From Rivularia sp. PCC 7116 (GTDB lineage Bacteria > Cyanobacteriota > Cyanobacteriia > Cyanobacteriales > Nostocaceae): a DNA stretch of 64,000 nucleotides. The stretch lies in assembly GCF_000316665.1 (NCBI RefSeq), contig NC_019678.1, forward strand, positions 7,845,001 to 7,909,000, in the 5' to 3' direction. The notes beneath the pieces were generated by a model. That model was not told the origin of the DNA. It searched no databases and saw only the letters and a list, made by a program, of their open reading frames with translations. The position numbers and the translations under genes were made by a program. Positions 1-25,457 of the stretch are shown here, in pieces; the first letter of the stretch is position 1; each line of letters starts with the position of its first letter.

Positions 1-255
1 TTCAACTGGAGAAGTTTCTTCAGGTTTTACCGATGGTTCTGAAGTCGGTGGTTTTTCTTGTTCTGGTTCGTCAATAACAATAATTTCAATCGGTTCATCT
101 GCTTCGACGAATTCTTTTTCCTTAAATAAATATGGTAAGAAAATAATACCGATTATATGAGCTACAATTGAAGCCGCAAAACAATAGACCAGAAATTTAT
201 TTAGTTTTTTCGATTCTTTTTCGTGCTGTTCTATACAAATTTGCGATATGCTCAT
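1..255 (-). CDS. TonB-like energy transducer, N-terminal part (cut by window edge)
   Basis: The gene reads leftward from an ATG at 255, with a good Shine-Dalgarno (AAGGAG) a few bases upstream, and runs off the window. A short cytoplasmic N-terminus is followed by one hydrophobic segment (about residues 20-43), then an acidic and proline/glutamate-rich stretch (EIIVIDEPEQEKPP). One inner-membrane anchor plus a Pro/Glu-rich periplasmic spacer is the usual start of a TonB-family protein, which couples the proton motive force to outer-membrane receptors. The diagnostic C-terminal domain is outside the window, so another single-anchor Pro-rich protein is possible. It would lie inside the first hupS element if that element extends left. 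Confidence 0.55.
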   Translation of the reverse strand, partial: MSISQICIEQHEKESKKLNKFLVYCFAASIVAHIIGIIFLPYLFKEKEFVEADEPIEIIVIDEPEQEKPPTSEPSVKPEETSPVE

Positions 256-1091
256 ATTTCACTCCTTATTCCATCTTAAGAACAACCACCATTACTTATT
301 TAATATTGTCTAAATAGTAATTATTGCAACTAAAATATAGATGATTCTAAAAAACTCGAATAAATAAACTCTCAGTAAATTAGTTACATATCTATTGCTA
401 ATAATTCTCAATATATCTTTTATGGATTGAAGTATCAATAGATATTTTTTCCTAGCTCTTTTAGTTTTTAAAGTATAAAATAAATTCAAAAAAGGACTGA
501 AATATTTTAAGTACCTCCGGCGCAACCTTGGGGTATGTGCTAAGCGTCTCAAAATATTATTTTTTTATTTAATGAGTTTTAAACTCAGGTGGTGAAGTTT
601 CAAAAAATACATTACCGCTCAAACCTTATTCCTCCGGTGGTACTTACTTCGTTTATAACAGAAGATAGATACGTTTAATTATTGGCTTGCACTTTTAGGT
701 AAACGGCTAAGAGCAAGCTTAATTAAGATTATGAAGTCAAAGATTTGATGGCAGATTAGCAGGATTGCTGTTGATAGTAATTCTCATAATTTTATTTATA
801 TATTTTCCGTAAGTGAAGAAATATACACTTTTGCTTAAAGTTGAGTTTTTGTCTTTGATAGTGAGTATTGATTCATTCAAGTTTTATATTCTAATACTGT
901 CCACTGCGATACAAACAATACTCATTTTCCAATCAAAAAATTACATAGTTCACTTTTAACAAAAAATTTCACATTTAGAGTTAATCTAATATTGAATTGA
1001 GAAAGCGCCAAGCCACATGCAAATAGAAACCGATAAAGAATTTTGGACAAGACAACTTAAAGAATGGCGCGAACTAGTTAAAAAAAGGGAA
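256..1091. other. Intergenic, no supported gene
   Basis: About 840 AT-rich bases between the TonB-like gene and the serine recombinase. An open frame on the minus strand (310-552) is low complexity and lacks a convincing ribosome binding site. I searched by eye for the missing hupS 5' exon (residues around GGACSGNT) and did not find it. Confidence 0.5.
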
Positions 1092-2627
1092 TTAGAGAAA
1101 CTCAATCCCTGCAACAACTCGTTTGTCAATAATAATGCGACGAACAAACCTGTTTAGTATCCGCTTCTTATCATCTGGTGTCCTAGTTTCCCAAAATTCG
1201 CGATCGCAAAACATTTGGGATAATTCTTCTCTTACTAATAAACTGCGTGTCGTTACCTTTTCGTCCAGGGTGAGAATACTAGCTATTTGTTCGCGAATGC
1301 CATCTTTCGCTTTTTCGACAAAGGGATTATTGGCTAATTTTTCCAATCCTGCTAAAGTCTCCCTCAATTCTTTAACTTCTGGGGGTTCTTCACGTTTCTC
1401 TGACTCTAAACTCACCATCCCAGCCAGTCTAGTAGCTTCTTTTACTAGTAAATCTGCAATTTGTTCGTCGAGATTATCGCTGCGAATCATTTCTTTCCGG
1501 TTGCATCTTCCCAAGGGAAAATAACTGCATTGATAATAGTGGATTAAGTTACCTCCCCTTTTAAGTTGTCCGGATGTCCGAGTCAATGCTCCCCCGCAGT
1601 TAGAGCATTTTAATAAATTGGCGAAAGCATTGACTCTTTTGCTACCAACCCAACGATTATTAGCATTAGAGCGAATAGTCTTTTTAACTTGTTCGTGCTG
1701 CTCGCGGCTAATAATCCCTTCATGGGTATCCCAATTACAATCCCATCGATCAAAATGATTTAATTGCTTTCCCGATGGACTTTTAGTTGTCACGTTAAAA
1801 GGAGTTCCCCCAGCGTTAACAGGATTAACCAAAAAATTCTTTAATCCAGATGCAGACCATTGTAGACTTCCCCAAGGATATCTTTTAAAAGTACTCTTCT
1901 TACTTGACGAAAAATCAGCGACTTCTAGATTTTCTCTATCGATTACGTGCTTGCTAGTTTTCTTACGGCTTCGAGCTTCTACTTTATTAAGAGTGCCAAA
2001 CATTTTATTCAGAGTGTCGCAGGTTTTACGGACGCTACCACATTGATTAAACACTTGAAAAATAAATAAAGCTAATTCCCAAACTCGAAAACATCGCTTT
2101 CCTTCCAACAAACAAACACACCAACTTTCATCTCTGACATAGCTATCGTTAACCACCTTCCATCCCAAAGGAGCAAACCTATGGCTTTTTCTTTGTGCCA
2201 TTCGATGCTTGCGTTCGGCACTGACGCGACTGGATAACATTTTTATCTCAAATTTGGATGCTGCGAGCAAAATATCCACAGTTAATTCCCCACCCAAACT
2301 TTCTGTATCAATAGTTTGGTCGAGAGCTATTAACTTTATATTTTTACTCCGTAATACTTCCATTAAGGCGTAAAATAATTTGGAAGAACTACCGATGCGG
2401 TCAATTCTCGTTACCACAAGTTCCCTAACCCTACCTTTAGTTGCTACTTTCAAATCATCGATCAGTTGTTGTAGCCCTTCGCGAACTTCAGTGGTACGAC
2501 TTTGAATATCCCAATAAAAACGCGCGCATCCGGAATTTTTGCCTCTTTCCAATTGTTTTCTTAACGCATCTCTGTCTTCTTGCTGCTCGATACTAGATAC
2601 TCGACCGTAAAACCATCTTTGATTCAT
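1092..2627 (-). CDS. Large serine recombinase, XisF-like, of the first hupS element
   Basis: A site-specific recombinase of 511 aa, close to the length I recall for XisF. The N-terminal resolvase domain carries the catalytic serine in GRVSS (Ser11), with the conserved arginines in RIDRIGSSS near residue 72 and the GGELTVDILLAASKFE helix. A recombinase domain follows, then a Cys4-type zinc ribbon (CSNCGG ... CSYFPLGRC) and a helical C-terminus. It is clearly homologous to the recombinase at 23904-25457 (same GGELT, FANLLKC and KEAERLAG landmarks). The gene is antiparallel to hupS with its start ~40 bp from the exon edge. By analogy with XisF it should excise the element from hupS in developing heterocysts; that role is inferred. 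Confidence 0.85.
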   Translation of the reverse strand: MNQRWFYGRVSSIEQQEDRDALRKQLERGKNSGCARFYWDIQSRTTEVREGLQQLIDDLKVATKGRVRELVVTRIDRIGSSSKLFYALMEVLRSKNIKLIALDQTIDTESLGGELTVDILLAASKFEIKMLSSRVSAERKHRMAQRKSHRFAPLGWKVVNDSYVRDESWCVCLLEGKRCFRVWELALFIFQVFNQCGSVRKTCDTLNKMFGTLNKVEARSRKKTSKHVIDRENLEVADFSSSKKSTFKRYPWGSLQWSASGLKNFLVNPVNAGGTPFNVTTKSPSGKQLNHFDRWDCNWDTHEGIISREQHEQVKKTIRSNANNRWVGSKRVNAFANLLKCSNCGGALTRTSGQLKRGGNLIHYYQCSYFPLGRCNRKEMIRSDNLDEQIADLLVKEATRLAGMVSLESEKREEPPEVKELRETLAGLEKLANNPFVEKAKDGIREQIASILTLDEKVTTRSLLVREELSQMFCDREFWETRTPDDKKRILNRFVRRIIIDKRVVAGIEFL

Positions 2628-2669
2628 GACAATTTAGTTTCTGTTTTTTTGTTTTATAGAGAATATACT

Positions 2670-3257
2670 ATGTCATTTCTAAACGCCGAAGAACCAACAG
2701 CGGTCGATTTAGTAACTGACTTTGGCGTTAATATGCTATGGCACCCATCTTTAGGCTTAGAGTTGGGTATCGAATTACAAACAATGTTGTGGGAATGTCT
2801 TTTAGGTAAAAAACCTCTGGACGTTCTAGTTTTTGAAGGTACTGTAATTAATGGTCCCAACGGTACTGGAGAATGGAATCGCTTCGCAGATCGTCCTATG
2901 AAAGATTGGTTGAGCGATTTGGCTCAAGTTGCCAATTTTGTTGTAGCGGTGGGTGACTGTGCTTGCTGGGGAGGAATTCCCTCAATGGCACCAAATCCCA
3001 CCGAATCAATGGGGTTGCAATATCTGAGGAGAGAAGAAGGGGGATTTTTAGGTAAAGACTTTCGAGCCAAGTCTGGTTTACCCGTGATAAATATTCCTGG
3101 TTGCCCAGCTCACCCGGACTGGATTACTCAAATTTTGGTCGCGATCGCAACTGGTAGAATCGGCGATATTGTTCTTGATGACCTGCATCGTCCCCAAACC
3201 TTCTTTAATACATTTACGCAGACTGGTTGTACAAGAATTATTCACTTACTAAGCTAA
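2670..3257 (+). CDS. hupS: hupS middle exon: uptake [NiFe]-hydrogenase small subunit, interrupted at both ends
   Basis: This encodes the electron-transfer small subunit, which holds the FeS clusters and passes electrons from HupL. Visible family motifs are VFEGTVINGPNGTG, GDCACWGG, INIPGCPAHPDWITQI and LDDLHRPQTFF, ending at QTGCTR (residue 188 counting from the ATG at 2670). Real homology stops at about 3247; the last codons before the TAA at 3257 come from the inserted element. The ATG at 2670 is an internal methionine of the family, so the native N-terminus is missing. Joined to 5059-5412 it gives 304 aa, and with the missing ~16 codons about 320 aa, the usual HupS length. Unrearranged DNA cannot make a functional subunit. 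Confidence 0.93.
   Translation: MSFLNAEEPTAVDLVTDFGVNMLWHPSLGLELGIELQTMLWECLLGKKPLDVLVFEGTVINGPNGTGEWNRFADRPMKDWLSDLAQVANFVVAVGDCACWGGIPSMAPNPTESMGLQYLRREEGGFLGKDFRAKSGLPVINIPGCPAHPDWITQILVAIATGRIGDIVLDDLHRPQTFFNTFTQTGCTRIIHLLS
3231..3247 (+). repeat. Left recombination site of second hupS element
   Basis: Sequence ACAAGAATTATTCACTT at the end of the hupS middle exon. It matches 5059-5075 at 15 of 17 positions (mismatches at positions 8 and 12), giving perfect blocks of 7, 3 and 5 bp. The crossover must fall in one of these blocks. Confidence 0.8.
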
Positions 3258-3552
3258 AGCTATTAATATATAAAGATTGCAGAGATTTAAGATAATCACT
3301 TGATTAATAGTTGGCTAAAAAAAGTCATGTTCAGAAAGTCAAATCAACTTTAAAAGCCGAATCTAATTAATATTTTTTTTACTCAATATTTACTAAATAT
3401 TTACTAAATACTCCTTCAAAAAAATAAATTAAATAATGGTAAGTATATGTACATAAAATTATCTATACTGTCTAATTTAAAAAATATAAGAATAAAAAAA
3501 ATGACCATTATACTAGGTCACTCTTATAGATTTAGTTATAATATATTCAATC

Positions 3553-4944
3553 TTACTTAAATGGAATACATAAGCGCAATCTACTATTTTCTAGCTCTAA
3601 CTCAGTTATTCTTTCTGTAGCTAATCGTAATTTATATTTTAACTGCTCTACCTCGCTTATTTCTTCAAATGCTTGGTTGAAAGCTTTTCTTCTATTTTCT
3701 AATCCAAACCATTTTTGATAAACTTTAGTATGCATTTCAACAGAATGACCTAAATTATCTGCTGCGGCTTTAATAGGTATTCCTTGTAAATGCGCTCTAA
3801 TTGCACAAGCATGACGTAAATCGTATGGTGTAAATGGAATACCTACTATTCTAAAATTTCTAGAAATTAAATCTATTTTTCTTCGCTGTTTTTCATTATC
3901 ACCATCACAGAAAAAATCTTTTTTAACCCAATCGAAAACTGATTGATTTTTTAACTCAAAAAGCTCAATCCACTCAGGTACAAAAGGGAAAACTTCCCTA
4001 TAACCTGTTTTATTATCACTTCCCACTTTGAAAGTGCTATTCTTATTGTCAGGAGATATTAACCAATACAAATTCGAGTCATTGATTATTTCTCTAGGTC
4101 TTAATCCGTATACAGCGATTAAACCATAGAAAAATTGATATATTTTCCATCTGTCTTTTCTGGCTTGCTCGATAAATTTAGCCGACTCGTAATGCTTTTT
4201 AAATTGCGAAGCATAAACTTGTATCTCATCATCAGATGGTATATATCTTTGCTTAACTTGCTTTTCTAGGAATAAATCAGAAAAATCAACAGATATATCT
4301 AATAGGTTGCAAACAATAGATGCTACAGAAATTGCCTTAATTCTTGTTGAGTAAGTATCGGCTTTCAAAATTAATTCTCTAAAGTTATTCTTAGTAATTG
4401 ATAAATCACTTAAAAATCTTTGTCTATATACTTTTTTATGTCCTTGTATAGTTCCTATACTTTTACGAGTTTTTTTTCGATTCTGAAAATAAAGTTTTTC
4501 AAACATTTCATAAAACTCTCTAAAAGTGATTCCTTGATTTCTTTTTGTATTAACCCCTAGATATTTATCAGTCCAGGTAAAAGTCTGACGAGCAATTAAC
4601 TTACCTAACTCATAAGCTTCTTCTTCAGCAGTTTTTAAACCATCAAAATTTGCTGGAATTCCCAAGCTTATGGTGTATTGTCTTCTACTCCTACCCTGTT
4701 TATGGGTATCACCAGGTTTTAAAGGTAGAGTAGCTCTAAGCTGTATACCTCCTCCAATAGAAACTAAGCTTACCTTAGTTTTACCAGACTTAAGCCTGGA
4801 ATTGATTTGGTCTAATTCTTGATTCAACTTCATCTCAAAGTGTTTCTGAGTAGCATCTGCTATTTTTTTCATTCCTCTATAAGAACCGTCGCAAGTAGTT
4901 GGAACTTCAAAATCAGCAAAAACTTTATCTTGTATATCTTCCAT
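3553..4944 (-). CDS. XisA/XisC-like tyrosine recombinase of the second hupS element
   Basis: 463 aa. The C-terminal half is a tyrosine recombinase catalytic domain: first arginine in YGLRPREI (~residue 300), YDLRHACAIRAH with the second arginine, LGHS, and the nucleophile tyrosine in TKVYQKWF. The first histidine of the usual H-x-x-R is a tyrosine (YDLR), a substitution I recall as typical of XisA and XisC, the nifD- and hupL-element excisases. The N-terminal region with GRSRRQYTISLGIP also resembles that family. The last ~35 residues look like a coiled coil. The gene is antiparallel to hupS and its start lies 115 bp from the downstream exon. Expected role: heterocyst-specific excision that restores hupS. 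Confidence 0.88.
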   Translation of the reverse strand: MEDIQDKVFADFEVPTTCDGSYRGMKKIADATQKHFEMKLNQELDQINSRLKSGKTKVSLVSIGGGIQLRATLPLKPGDTHKQGRSRRQYTISLGIPANFDGLKTAEEEAYELGKLIARQTFTWTDKYLGVNTKRNQGITFREFYEMFEKLYFQNRKKTRKSIGTIQGHKKVYRQRFLSDLSITKNNFRELILKADTYSTRIKAISVASIVCNLLDISVDFSDLFLEKQVKQRYIPSDDEIQVYASQFKKHYESAKFIEQARKDRWKIYQFFYGLIAVYGLRPREIINDSNLYWLISPDNKNSTFKVGSDNKTGYREVFPFVPEWIELFELKNQSVFDWVKKDFFCDGDNEKQRRKIDLISRNFRIVGIPFTPYDLRHACAIRAHLQGIPIKAAADNLGHSVEMHTKVYQKWFGLENRRKAFNQAFEEISEVEQLKYKLRLATERITELELENSRLRLCIPFK

Positions 4945-5058
4945 TATTTTACTAATTGTTTACTATTTTAATTAATGTTTTATTTGAACTATTAGTCCTT
5001 CAAACAAGTTCATAGTAAACATTTTACGGTAAAATAGCACCGTAGATTAAATGAATAA

Positions 5059-5075
5059 ACAAGAAATATCCACTT
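5059..5075 (+). repeat. Right recombination site of second hupS element
   Basis: Sequence ACAAGAAATATCCACTT at the start of the last hupS exon, the partner of 3231-3247. It encodes TRNIHF in the hupS frame. Confidence 0.8.
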
Positions 5076-5412
5076 TGCCTACAAAGCATCCAGCACAGAA
5101 TTCGCTCAACGTAAAGGATGCCTATTTTACGATATCGGGTGTCGCGGCCCGATGACACACTCTTCCTGCAATCGCATCTTGTGGAATAGAGTCTCATCAA
5201 AAACCCGCGCTGGAGTTCCATGTTTGGGATGTACCGAACCAGAATTTCCTTTCTATGATTTAAAACCAGGCACCGTATTTAAAACTCAGACAGTACTTGG
5301 CGTTCCTAAAGATTTACCAACAGGAGTCAACAAGAAAGATTATGCCGTTTTAACAATGGCGGCTAAAGATTCAATGCCAGCTTGGGCAGAAGAAGACTTT
5401 TTTACGGTCTAA
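5059..5412 (+). CDS. hupS: hupS last exon: C-terminal part of uptake hydrogenase small subunit
   Basis: In-frame sequence from ACA at 5059 to the TAA at 5410-5412 gives 117 residues. It carries the distal and medial cluster ligands of HupS: HFAYKASSTEFAQRKGC, LFYDIGCRGPMTH, SCNRILWNR and GVPCLGCTEPEFPFYD. No start codon or ribosome binding site precedes it, so it depends on excision of the 1.8-kb element to be joined to the middle exon. It lies 148 bp upstream of hupL, as expected for a hupSL operon. Confidence 0.93.
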   Translation, partial: TRNIHFAYKASSTEFAQRKGCLFYDIGCRGPMTHSSCNRILWNRVSSKTRAGVPCLGCTEPEFPFYDLKPGTVFKTQTVLGVPKDLPTGVNKKDYAVLTMAAKDSMPAWAEEDFFTV

Positions 5413-5560: not shown

Positions 5561-7156
5561 ATGGGAATACAAACATTAGACATTTCGCCTCTCGGTAGAG
5601 TTGAGGGGGATTTAGATGTAAGAGTTGATATTGATGATGGGCAAGTCGTCAACGCTTGGACTCATGCGGAATTATTTCGCGGATTTGAAGTTATCCTTAA
5701 AGGTAAAGATCCACAGGCTGGGTTAATTGTCACACCAAGAGTCTGCGGTATCTGCGGGGCTTCCCATTTAACTAGTGCGGCTTGGGCTTTAGATACCGCT
5801 TGGAAAACCGAAGTTCCCCGCAATGCGATTTTGGCGAGAAATATCGGTCAGATTGTCGAGACTATACAGAGTATTCCTCGCTATTTCTATGGACTGTTTG
5901 CGATTGATTTAACTAATAAAAAGTATCAGCACAGTCATTTCTATCAAGAAGCTTGTCGCCGTTTTGCTCCTTTTACGGGTAAGTCTTATGAAATTGGGGT
6001 AACTGTTTCTAGTAAGCCGGTGGAAATTTACGCTTTGTTTGGCGGACAATGGCCCCACAGCAGTTATATGGTGCCTGGTGGAGTAATGTGCGCTCCGACT
6101 TTAACCGACGTAACCCGCGCTTGGTCGATTTTGGAATATTTTCGGACTAATTGGCTCGAACCAGTTTGGTTGGGTTGCTCTTTAGAACGTTATGAAGAAA
6201 TCCAAACCTATGAGGATTTTATGAATTGGCTGGATGAAAATCCCAATCATGCAAATTCTGACTTGGGTTTTTATTGGCGCATGGGTTTGGATATCGGTTT
6301 ACATAAATATGGTCAGGGTTTGGGTAAATATGTTACCTGGGGATACTTACCTCACGAAGTAAAGTATCAACACCCTACGGTTGAAGGTCGAAATGCGGCT
6401 CTCATTATGAAAAGCGGAGTATACGACAGTTTTACGGATACTCATGTTCCGATGAATCATGGTTTTGTCCGCGAAAATACTTCTCACTCTTGGTATAACG
6501 AAGGTGCAGGGGACGTTCATCCTTACGACCGTAATACTCGACCTACTCAAAACAACGTTAAAGATTTTGAGAATGAATATTCTTGGGGAACTGCGGTAAC
6601 TCATGTAGATTACGGACGTTTGGAAGCAGGCCCGTTGGCTCGTCAATTGGTAGCGGGTGGTACTCACGGTGAAACTTGGCAACACTATGATGGATTTATC
6701 CTTGATGCTTTCAAGCAAATGGGTGGTGCTAGTATCCATGTACGTCAATTAGCCAGAGTCCACGAAGTTGTTAAGCTTTACCGTCAAGCGGAACGTTGTT
6801 TGCGAGAATTTCGTTTGAATGACCCCTGGTATATCAAGCCAAAAGAACAAGACGGACGCGGTTGGGGTGCTACCGAGGCATCAAGAGGAGCTTTATGTCA
6901 TTGGATAGATATTGAAGGTGGCAAGATTAAAAATTATCAAATTATGGCTCCTTCAACTTGGAATATTGGGCCTCGCGACAGTGAAGGAAAACGCGGTCCC
7001 ATTGAAGAAGCTTTAATCGGTACCCCTATCTTTGACTCAACAGATCCAGTCGAAGTTGGTCATGTAGCTCGTTCGTTCGATTCTTGTTTGGTATGTACCG
7101 TCCACGCTCACGATGCAAAAACGGGTGAAGAATTAGCGCGTTTTCGGACAGCTTAA
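5561..7156 (+). CDS. hupL: Uptake [NiFe]-hydrogenase large subunit
   Basis: 531 aa, full length. Carries the nickel-iron active site. The N-terminal ligand pair is in RVCGICGASH (~residue 64) and the C-terminal pair in DSCLVCTVH. The protein ends 16 residues after that histidine (AHDAKTGEELARFRTA), the extension normally cut off by the maturation protease after Ni insertion; the matching protease gene hupW lies at 12055. HupL recycles H2 made by nitrogenase in heterocysts. Unlike in Anabaena PCC 7120 the gene is uninterrupted, although the XisC core sequence is present (6056-6071). An antisense open frame at 6347-6748 is a shadow. Confidence 0.97.
   Translation: MGIQTLDISPLGRVEGDLDVRVDIDDGQVVNAWTHAELFRGFEVILKGKDPQAGLIVTPRVCGICGASHLTSAAWALDTAWKTEVPRNAILARNIGQIVETIQSIPRYFYGLFAIDLTNKKYQHSHFYQEACRRFAPFTGKSYEIGVTVSSKPVEIYALFGGQWPHSSYMVPGGVMCAPTLTDVTRAWSILEYFRTNWLEPVWLGCSLERYEEIQTYEDFMNWLDENPNHANSDLGFYWRMGLDIGLHKYGQGLGKYVTWGYLPHEVKYQHPTVEGRNAALIMKSGVYDSFTDTHVPMNHGFVRENTSHSWYNEGAGDVHPYDRNTRPTQNNVKDFENEYSWGTAVTHVDYGRLEAGPLARQLVAGGTHGETWQHYDGFILDAFKQMGGASIHVRQLARVHEVVKLYRQAERCLREFRLNDPWYIKPKEQDGRGWGATEASRGALCHWIDIEGGKIKNYQIMAPSTWNIGPRDSEGKRGPIEEALIGTPIFDSTDPVEVGHVARSFDSCLVCTVHAHDAKTGEELARFRTA
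6056..6071 (+). other. Unoccupied XisC core site in hupL
   Basis: CACAGCAGTTATATGG, encoding part of PHSSYM in HupL. From memory this is identical to the 16-bp direct repeat flanking the hupL element of Anabaena PCC 7120. Here it occurs once, uninterrupted, within an intact hupL, so it is an empty target site. Confidence 0.75.
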
Positions 7157-23581: not shown

Positions 23582-23881
23582 CTAACGAATTAAGTCGAAG
23601 GAGATATCTGTCTTAGAAGGAATATTGGTGTTGCGGTCAATTTCCTCAAAGATTGCGTTTACAACCCAGGTAATTAGGTTGATTGTACCTTCATAACCAA
23701 TGGTAGCGTAGCGGTGTAGATTGTGACGATCCATGATAGGATAACCAACTCTGATCAAAGGAGTCTTGGTATCGCGCTCTAAGTACTTACCGTAGGAGTT
23801 ACCAATCATGAAGTCAACTGGCTCGGTGAACAGTAAAGAACTAATATGCTGACTATCAGGTAAAATATAATGTAATATCAA
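23582..23881 (-). CDS. nifK: nifK 3' exon: nitrogenase MoFe protein beta subunit, C-terminal fragment
   Basis: Recognisable NifK from SLLFTEPVDF to the end: IGNSYGKYLERDTK, RVGYPIMDRHNLHRYATIGYEG and the family terminus KTDISFDLIR, about 90 of the usual ~510 residues. Homology fades upstream of about 23850, where the frame reads MILHYILPDSQ; a native boundary anywhere in 23835-23880 is possible. No NifK 5' portion occurs elsewhere in the window. The fragment sits in place upstream of nifE, so this is the normal nifK locus interrupted rather than a stray copy. Functional only after DNA rearrangement. Confidence 0.92.
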   Translation of the reverse strand: MILHYILPDSQHISSLLFTEPVDFMIGNSYGKYLERDTKTPLIRVGYPIMDRHNLHRYATIGYEGTINLITWVVNAIFEEIDRNTNIPSKTDISFDLIR

Positions 23882-23903
23882 ATATCGCTGTAAGGTTTAC
23901 TAT

Positions 23904-25457
23904 ATGGACGTTTGGGGATATGCTCGCGTTAGCACGGATGAGCAAGCAGACGATGAAGGAGCATTGATTAAACAAATGCGTCGTTTGCGGAGTGCGGGAG
24001 CGACGAAATTATATTATGACGTTGAAAGTCGTACCAGCGATAAGCGTAAAGGGCTTTTACGGTTAATTGAAGACATTAATGTATTGGCAAAAGGCAAAGT
24101 ATCTAAACTATTATTTATCAGAATTGACCGTTTAACATCATCATCAATGACTTTTTATCGGTTGATGGATGCTTTGAAAAAAAAAGGTATAGAGCCGACT
24201 GCAATTGATGAGCCTTTTGATATTTCAAGTATTGGTGGAGAATTGACAATTGATGTCAGATTAGCTGCGAGTAAATATGAAGTTAAAATGTTAGGAATGC
24301 GGGTAAAAAAAGAAAGAGATGCTCGAAAAGTAAATAAAAAGGCTCATTGGAATGCTCCTTTAGGATATAAAGTTGAAAACGATAAATATAAGAGGGATGA
24401 TAGTCCCTGTGTTTGCATTATTGAGGGACAAATTCAACTATCGCGATCGCAATTAATGAGATTAGTTTTTGACACATTTTTGGCAGTCGGTACCATTTCT
24501 CAAACGGTGAAAAAAATGCACGATATTTTGGGAATTCAAGCAAACGCTGTACCCAAATTCCGCGATGAGAAAGTTAATATTATAGGAGAAGAAGACAAAA
24601 TTATATTATCAAATATCAACAAATCTCGTGGCACTGGCTTAAATCTGCGTTATCCCCATACGGGTTTAAAATGGTCGGTTTCTGGCTTGCGTTCGATTCT
24701 TGTTAATCCCATATATGCAGGGGGAACCTTGTATAACACCATTGTTAGTTCCAAAAAACATCGCAAACCTTTTGACGAATGGGAAGTTACATGGGGAACT
24801 CATGATTCGGAAGCGATTATTAGTTATGAAGAACACGAGCGCATTAAAACTATGATTCGCGGTAATCGGAATAATCGATGGGCTAGCGCGCAAAAATATA
24901 CTAATCCTTTTGCAAATTTAGTAAAATGCCAGCGTTGCGGTGCAGCTTACAGTCGTCAGTGCAAAAAATTAGTTAAGAAAAAGAACTTTATCAGACATCA
25001 TTACCAATGCAGTTTTTATCGTACTGGTGCTTGTGATAACAAAAAAATGATTTCTTCCGATAGCCTAGAAAAACAAGTCATAGAACATTTAGTTAAAGAA
25101 GCCGAAAGATTAGCGGGATTGGTAGAAAAAGAAACGAAAGTTCTAGAAGAGCCAGCATCTGTAAAAACCCTGCGAGCATCTTTGAATACTCTAGAAGCGC
25201 TGCCATCAAATCCAGCTATTGAAAAAGCCAAAGAAGATATGAGGGTACAAATTGCTGATGCTTTAGCCACTGCGAGTAATGATTCGGTGCAATATTTGAT
25301 TGCTAAAGAGCGAATTATCCGGGCATTTTCTAATCCAGAATTTTGGCAAGGATTGCAGGTAGAGGATAAAAAAGCTTTATTGCAAGGATGCGTACAAAAA
25401 ATAATAGTTGATGGTAATAGGGTAACAAGACTTGAATTGATTCACCTTTCGTCTTAG
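23904..25457 (+). CDS. Large serine recombinase, XisF-like, at the nifK break
   Basis: 517 aa, paralogous to the protein at 1092-2627. Catalytic serine in ARVSTDEQ (Ser10), conserved IRIDRLTSSS and GGELTIDVRLAASKYE in the resolvase domain, then the recombinase domain (LKWSVSGLRSILVNPIYAGG) and zinc ribbon (CQRCGAAYSRQC ... CSFYRTGACDNKK). AAGG precedes the ATG. Antiparallel to nifK, with its start ~50 bp from the exon edge, exactly as the other recombinase stands to hupS. Expected to excise the nifK element during heterocyst differentiation. Confidence 0.88.
   Translation: MDVWGYARVSTDEQADDEGALIKQMRRLRSAGATKLYYDVESRTSDKRKGLLRLIEDINVLAKGKVSKLLFIRIDRLTSSSMTFYRLMDALKKKGIEPTAIDEPFDISSIGGELTIDVRLAASKYEVKMLGMRVKKERDARKVNKKAHWNAPLGYKVENDKYKRDDSPCVCIIEGQIQLSRSQLMRLVFDTFLAVGTISQTVKKMHDILGIQANAVPKFRDEKVNIIGEEDKIILSNINKSRGTGLNLRYPHTGLKWSVSGLRSILVNPIYAGGTLYNTIVSSKKHRKPFDEWEVTWGTHDSEAIISYEEHERIKTMIRGNRNNRWASAQKYTNPFANLVKCQRCGAAYSRQCKKLVKKKNFIRHHYQCSFYRTGACDNKKMISSDSLEKQVIEHLVKEAERLAGLVEKETKVLEEPASVKTLRASLNTLEALPSNPAIEKAKEDMRVQIADALATASNDSVQYLIAKERIIRAFSNPEFWQGLQVEDKKALLQGCVQKIIVDGNRVTRLELIHLSS

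What the first reader, a model, noticed from the sequence alone, without database searches (positions are those of the whole stretch)
1..5412. hupS interrupted twice, by elements of two different recombinase classes
The hupS reading frame is split into three. The first ~15 codons are missing at an XisF-like serine recombinase edge (2627/2667), and the rest is split by an XisC-like tyrosine-recombinase element (3231-5058). Both must be excised, by chemically unrelated enzymes, before the hydrogenase small subunit can be made. Two nested requirements in one ~1-kb gene would be a strict AND gate on H2 uptake. Interruptions of hupS are known from surveys of heterocyst formers; a double, two-class interruption is at least unusual.
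Basis: partly seen in the sequence, partly recalled or inferred. Interest (0 to 1): 0.88.

Follow-up and report, generated by a model that had tools for sequence, protein, structure and literature searches.

The report
Hydrogenase gene split by two elements
In this filamentous cyanobacterium a hydrogenase gene lies in three pieces separated by two probably removable DNA elements, a kind already known from nitrogen-fixing cyanobacteria; the larger, 91-kb element carries what looks like a siderophore (iron-gathering) gene island.

Summary
hupS lies in three in-order pieces on one strand. The first break is at codon 17/18, flanked by ATGTCAT copies, beside a serine recombinase that NCBIfam calls XisF. 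The second is a 1,828-bp XisC-like tyrosine-recombinase element. Joining at the repeats gives a normal 320-residue HupS, and the exons are under strong purifying selection (dN/dS about 0.02-0.07), so this is not decay. The elements are consecutive, not nested. The kind is known: Hilton et al. 2016 catalogue hupS elements, name Rivularia sp. PCC 7116 (almost certainly this genome) for a tyrosine hupS element, and report a nifD with four elements there. Among 217 family genomes, 20 have the codon-18 break, 3 have two breaks in one hupS, and only this genome and one congener combine serine and tyrosine classes. Unexpected: element 1 carries a beta-hydroxyaspartate-lipopeptide-type siderophore cluster with uptake genes, including both TonB-siderophore receptors scored above cut-off in this genome. 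If element 1 is excised in heterocysts, as inferred, that island leaves their chromosome. No excision was observed.

The parts
1..2669 (.). Right end of hupS element 1 (91,034 bp in all; left end and exon 1 lie outside the window, exon 1 at G000:C1:7756588-7756638)
1..255 (-). 5' part of a 284-aa ORF inside element 1 (whole ORF C1:7844401-7845255), TonB-like by eye only; no Pfam hit on the 85-aa piece, whole ORF not scanned
1092..2627 (-). xisF-like large serine recombinase, 511 aa; its start codon lies about 40 bp from the hupS junction
   Evidence: NCBIfam recomb_XisF 519.9 bits (cut-off 375), Pfam Resolvase + Recombinase + Zn_ribbon_recom
2649..2676 (+). Right att site of element 1: inner inverted-repeat arm plus core ATGTCAT (2670-2676); predicted crossover dinucleotide TC at 2673-2674
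2670..3237 (+). hupS exon 2 (codons 17-205 and the first base of 206; codons 17-18 lie in the element 1 core, 3231-3237 in the element 2 repeat)
   Evidence: Pfam Oxidored_q6
3231..5058 (.). hupS element 2, 1,828 bp, tyrosine-recombinase type
   Evidence: repeats; 1,840 bp in G005
3231..3247 (+). Left direct repeat ACAAGAATTATTCACTT
3553..4944 (-). xisC-like tyrosine recombinase, 463 aa
   Evidence: Pfam Phage_integrase 20.5 bits, below its cut-off of 27.1; 90% to the G005 copy; 57% to two recombinases lying among frames read by eye as nifB pieces
5059..5075 (+). Right direct repeat ACAAGAAATATCCACTT
5059..5412 (+). hupS exon 3
   Evidence: Pfam NiFe_hyd_SSU_C
5561..7156 (+). hupL, uninterrupted 531-aa frame
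   Evidence: hydrogenase large-subunit hits, all below those families' cut-offs

Best explanation
hupS carries two heterocyst-type interruption elements in series. Element 1 (91 kb) sits at codon 17/18 and is excised by its own XisF-type serine recombinase, with exchange at a central TC inside ATGTCAT; the excised circle would regain a roughly palindromic recombinase site. Element 2 (1.8 kb) sits at codons 204-209 and is excised by its own XisC-like tyrosine recombinase between 17-bp imperfect direct repeats. After both excisions hupS reads MANLLWLQGGACSGN-TMSFLNAEEP...TGCTR(N or I)IHFAYK... as a 320-residue protein. Shown by sequence: exon order, repeats, recombinase classes, intact joined frame, purifying selection, and the same architecture in a congener. 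Inferred: that excision happens, that it happens in heterocysts, and which enzyme acts at which site. Element 1 also holds a siderophore biosynthesis and uptake island, so its excision would take those genes out of the heterocyst chromosome.
For: 5' exon found, no other hupS found. In 8 of 8 junction pairs aligned (of 20 genomes with this break) both borders keep TC at the predicted centre although neighbouring bases vary, and joining at TC restores ...GACSGNTMSFLNAEEPT; in G026 and G029 the right border alone would not encode TMS. The inner arms pair at 18-23 of 30 positions in the circle, against 10-17 of 30 across the joined gene. XisF equivalog 519.9 bits. XisF proteins of 7 other hupS elements are 64-91% identical to this one, against 42% for the other XisF-like protein in the window. 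dN/dS: exon 2 0.017-0.064, exon 3 0.018-0.071, xisF 0.077-0.097, xisC-like 0.128. Uninterrupted relatives show the empty site. Kind described in PMC4874684.
Against: No excision, expression or heterocyst data. The XisC-like protein is below Pfam's cut-off and no XisC or XisA model is among its NCBIfam hits. The element 2 repeats differ at 2 of 17 positions, so the exact crossover is uncertain. The TC centre is partly expected, because the right-hand copy is the start of a conserved codon (18, Ser). In G026 the circle site is hardly more palindromic than the joined gene (18 against 17 of 30), and no shuffled control was made for the arms.
Confidence: 0.93

Rival explanations
1. hupS is a decaying pseudogene hit by two insertions; the elements no longer leave.
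For: No transcript or excision data are available.
Against: All three exons are open and in frame, dN/dS is as low as between intact relatives, both recombinases are intact and constrained, and matched borders are kept.
Confidence: 0.03
2. The double break is an assembly or rearrangement artefact.
For: Hilton et al. flag seven 'odd assembly' cases; G207 here has exon 1 and the body in opposite orientation.
Against: G000 is in 3 contigs and rated 100% complete; G005 shows both the same junctions (its element 1 borders lie on contigs C126 and C125) and G006 the first.
Confidence: 0.02
3. The pair works as an evolved logic gate: two differently regulated recombinases make hydrogenase expression conditional on two signals.
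For: Two unrelated recombinases; element 1 carries three AraC-type regulators among iron-uptake genes.
Against: Multiple elements per gene are known without shown logic; the combination occurs in 2 of 217 genomes of the family; a review already reports the hup operon as expressed only in mature heterocysts (PMC6616624, passages).
Confidence: 0.08

Closest known systems
Interruption elements of heterocyst-forming cyanobacteria, hupS variants (Hilton, Meeks & Zehr 2016, PMC4874684)
   Same: hupS with 4 elements in 2 variants; serine and tyrosine xis genes near element ends; Rivularia sp. PCC 7116 named for a tyrosine hupS element; genes with several elements, nifD with four in that strain; variable gene content between elements of one variant
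   Different: The main text (Results and Discussion read) does not say that this hupS holds both classes or what element 1 carries; Table B (supplement) could not be opened
fdxN element and XisF of Nostoc sp. PCC 7120
   Same: XisF-type serine recombinase at the element edge (position and orientation in Nostoc recalled)
   Different: Other gene, core and cargo; xisH and xisI were not specifically searched for
hupL element and XisC / nifD element and XisA of Nostoc sp. PCC 7120
   Same: Tyrosine recombinase, direct repeats, hup operon
   Different: Breaks hupS rather than hupL; only 1.8 kb with the recombinase as the only long frame; no direct comparison with XisC or XisA sequences was made
Cyanochelin-type beta-hydroxyaspartate lipopeptide siderophore clusters (cyanochelin B, PMC12628792, passages)
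   Same: Acyl-AMP-ligase-like starter, PKS, NRPS, NRPS-fused and free-standing TauD-type hydroxylases, a reductase domain
   Different: Lies inside a hupS excision element; product unknown; cyanochelin B's cluster is on a Leptolyngbya plasmid

Membership tests
Heterocyst-type interruption element (element 1) | Splits a conserved gene whose two halves remain in order on one strand | tested here: met
Heterocyst-type interruption element (element 1) | Direct repeats at both borders, in-frame gene when joined | tested here: met
   ATGTCAT; 8 of 8 aligned junction pairs join in frame
Heterocyst-type interruption element (element 1) | Own recombinase gene near one end | tested here: met
   XisF relatives beside exon 2 in the genomes
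Heterocyst-type interruption element (elements 1 and 2) | Excised during heterocyst development | not testable with these tools
   Needs DNA or RNA from N-starved filaments
XisF serine recombinases | NCBIfam recomb_XisF above cut-off | tested here: met
   519.9 vs 375 bits
XisC/XisA tyrosine recombinases | Curated family model above cut-off | tested here: inconclusive
   No XisC or XisA family among the NCBIfam hits; Phage_integrase 20.5 vs 27.1 bits; 57% to two recombinases beside nifB-like pieces in this genome
Heterocyst-type interruption element (element 2) | Direct repeats bracket the element and joining restores the gene | tested here: met
   joined frame read by eye and in the typed query
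Cyanochelin-type siderophore cluster | Acyl ligase, PKS, NRPS, beta-hydroxylase(s), reductase domain, siderophore transport genes | tested here: met
   Domain level only; that the AMP-binding/carrier protein is a fatty-acyl ligase is inferred, A-domain specificities not tested
Cyanochelin-type siderophore cluster | Produces a beta-hydroxyaspartate lipopeptide | not testable with these tools
   Needs mass spectrometry of iron-starved cultures

The most novel reading that the evidence does not exclude
The hupS codon-18 element is a developmentally deleted iron-acquisition island: vegetative cells keep the siderophore genes while each heterocyst removes them from its chromosome in the same step that helps switch on hydrogen uptake, so iron gathering is left to the photosynthetic cells. 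Elements at the same site carry TonB-siderophore receptors in three genera.
Probability: 0.35. Interest if true: 0.75.

Novelty: new member of a known kind. Interest (0 to 1): 0.52.

Why it matters
It gives an anchored example (both ends, core, recombinase, empty sites) of a gene that appears to need two chemically different site-specific recombinations before it can work, and the codon-18 site, aligned here in 8 genomes, is a ready comparative set for XisF-type recombination. More important, the large element is not obviously junk: it holds both TonB-siderophore receptors that score above cut-off in this genome and a siderophore-type NRPS/PKS cluster. Hilton et al. call it an open question whether such elements benefit the host or are selfish DNA (passage); this makes one form of it testable: do heterocysts lose siderophore synthesis by excision?

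Tried and rejected
A stricter degenerate search for exon 1 found nothing, because the start MANLLW differs from the MTNVLW that I recalled; allowing mismatches found it. Decay and artefact were tested and rejected (see rivals). A fold of the element 2 left border gave nothing (z +1.83). ARAGORN found no tRNA gene in the 100 kb fetched around element 1. Plasmid searches with both recombinases gave only distant relatives: at best 29% identity in 3 records, and at best 26% for the listed rows of 736 records. The siderophore cargo is not universal: of 11 contiguous codon-18 elements, 6 (G029, G070, G071, G107, G123, G171) hold no TIGR01783 receptor above cut-off, though G070 and G071 hold ExbB/ExbD relatives. 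The G005 element is known only at its ends (1 kb and 8.6 kb), where nothing but xisF and one left-end frame resembles the cargo here and the two other long frames are caspase-like and CHAT/TPR. Eight cargo proteins sampled from G107, G123 and G171 gave a Wzt-type ABC protein, a glycosyltransferase, two OprB porins, two flavoproteins and two without a hit. In G000 itself element 1 also carries frames unrelated to iron, such as CHAT/TPR, CHASE2-cyclase and VTT proteins.

Full report
What is there. The window is G000:C1:7845001-7909000 of a genome of 8,728,773 bases in 3 contigs, rated 100% complete. hupS lies in three pieces. Exon 1 is at C1:7756588-7756638 (+), outside the window. Exon 2 is window 2670-3237 and exon 3 is 5059-5412. 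hupL follows at 5561-7156 as one frame. No other hupS copy was found in the genome.

Element 1. Exon 1 reads ATG GCT AAT TTA TTA TGG TTA CAA GGT GGC GCT TGT AGT GGC AAC ACC ATG TCA and then runs into a stop. Exon 2 begins in ...TATACTATGTCATTT. Both borders carry ATGTCAT; the core-to-core distance is 91,034 bp. The 511-aa protein at 1092-2627 (-) is an XisF by NCBIfam (519.9 bits, cut-off 375) and has Resolvase, Recombinase and zinc-ribbon domains. I aligned 8 junction pairs out of 20 genomes with this break (G000, G005, G006, G009, G010 second copy, G019, G026, G029). In 8 of 8 both borders have TC at the predicted centre, and joining there restores the conserved start of HupS, including G026 and G029, whose right border alone would not encode TMS. 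The inner arms are inverted repeats: the circle junction pairs 18-23 of 30 positions, the joined gene 10-17 of 30; the margin is only 18 to 17 in G026, and no shuffled control was made. Exon 1 holds Cys12 and Asn15. [quoted passage not shown] that these two residues are among them is my inference. If so, exon 2 alone cannot make a working subunit.

Element 2. ACAAGAATTATTCACTT (3231) and ACAAGAAATATCCACTT (5059) bracket 1,828 bp holding one long frame, a 463-aa tyrosine recombinase (3553-4944, -). Pfam Phage_integrase scores only 20.5 bits against a cut-off of 27.1. Its relatives in the genome (8 other matches) include two 57%-identical proteins that lie among frames I read by eye as pieces of nifB. 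G005 has the same element (1,840 bp, recombinase 90% identical).

Not decay. Nei-Gojobori dN/dS is 0.017-0.064 for exon 2 (7 genomes) and 0.018-0.071 for exon 3 (6 genomes) over all pairs with a finite dS, 0.077-0.097 for xisF (3 genomes) and 0.128 for the xisC-like gene (2 genomes). Pairs with saturated dS gave no ratio.

Survey. Of 217 genomes of the family (own included), 214 have a hupS match. Its match list was cut off, so 48 genomes were listed again and 26; one search lists others. A hupS copy whose body starts at codon 13-17, with a separate exon 1, occurs in 20 of 217: G000, G005, G006, G009, G010, G019, G026, G029, G070, G071, G072, G073, G107, G122, G123, G146, G153, G171, G207, G214. 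G010, G070, G072 and G073 also have an intact copy. G207 has exon 1 and body in opposite orientation, G153 shows two exon-1 matches, and in several draft genomes the two parts lie on different contigs. A break near codon 280 occurs in G001, G006, G069 and G110; the break near codon 205 in G000 and G005; G082 has a second copy split near codon 90. Two breaks in one gene: 3 of 217 (G000, G005, G006), all in one genus.

Cargo of element 1. Protein families found in its frames: TonB, ExbB, ExbD, two scanned TonB-dependent receptors (TIGR01783 236 and 444 bits, cut-off 223.5), three periplasmic iron-siderophore-type binding proteins, two FecCD-type permeases and a FecE-like ATPase, three AraC regulators, two MFS exporters (the NCBIfam equivalog hits of the transporters are all below cut-off). 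Between them is a block of about 44 kb (7774832-7819129) with an AMP-ligase/carrier protein, three PKS frames, four NRPS frames, one of them with a fused TauD hydroxylase and one ending in a reductase domain, and a free-standing TauD. This is the layout of beta-hydroxyaspartate lipopeptide siderophores such as cyanochelin B (PMC12628792, passages). A 930-aa frame that I took for a third receptor was not scanned. TIGR01783 receptors above cut-off inside the element (searched at E up to 1e-30): G000 2 of 2, G006 3 of 5, G010 1 of 1, G072 1 of 1, G019 1 of 5, and none in G029 (0 of 4), G070 (0 of 4), G071 (0 of 6), G107 (0 of 2), G123 (0 of 2), G171 (0 of 7). Together that is 8 of 39, while these 11 elements are 0.6% of the DNA (rounded genome sizes; the G171 element was fetched short of its right end). 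The genomes are related, so this is not 8 independent events: it is 3 genera of 7, and within genus g4 only 2 of 4 genomes. NRPS identity to the elements of G010, G072 and G019 is only 32-50%, so the cargo was either replaced or is old. An excised circle may persist and still be expressed: Hilton et al. themselves suggest a role for a paralogue in making proteins from excised elements. Loss of siderophore synthesis in heterocysts is therefore a prediction.

Compared with what is known. The kind is established. Hilton et al. 2016 (PMC4874684; abstract, Results and Discussion read) list hupS with 4 elements in 2 variants, 10 of 87 interrupted genes with several elements, nifD of Rivularia sp. 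PCC 7116 with four, and say that the tyrosine xis genes of that strain's nifB and hupS elements cluster together. Whether their Table B lists both hupS elements could not be checked. For a siderophore cluster inside a heterocyst interruption element I searched the open-access library and found no report in the listings; of their hits I opened PMC5987646, PMC6616624, PMC3610870 and PMC2821919, passages only, none of which describes one there. Most subscription papers are not held, and Galica et al. 2021 on cyanochelins was not held.

Verdict. The part most worth following is the siderophore island in the DNA that excision would remove.

Noticed in passing
window 23590-25457: A frame that reads like the nifK C-terminus (minus strand, by eye) stops near 23860, next to another XisF-like recombinase (23904-25457, +; 42-43% identical to the hupS one): probably a nifK element.
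   Followed up: partly
L220 (G000:C1:8056001-8072000): Frames that read like nifB are in pieces with two XisC-like recombinases of 464 aa beside them, and the nifH-like frame ends in an unusual tail, suggesting further elements (read by eye).
   Followed up: partly
L052:1833-3239 and window 1-255: A protein starting MSISQICI(D/E)QHEKE lies beside hupS in G001 and inside element 1 here: the same cargo family near two different hupS break sites.
   Followed up: no
G207:C3:485038-485952 (-) and 589930-589998 (+): hupS exon 1 and body face opposite ways: inversion instead of excision, or misassembly.
   Followed up: no
G082:C1:3899572-3899853 and 3925139-3925849: A second hupS copy looks split near codon 90 with about 25 kb between the parts: a further break site not examined.
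   Followed up: no
L006 (G007): HupS of G007 has an 8-residue insertion (about PPGRVPNA) in a stretch conserved in the other copies.
   Followed up: no
G000:C1:8075894-8079547: Two TonB-siderophore receptor matches below cut-off lie near the nif region, outside element 1.
   Followed up: no
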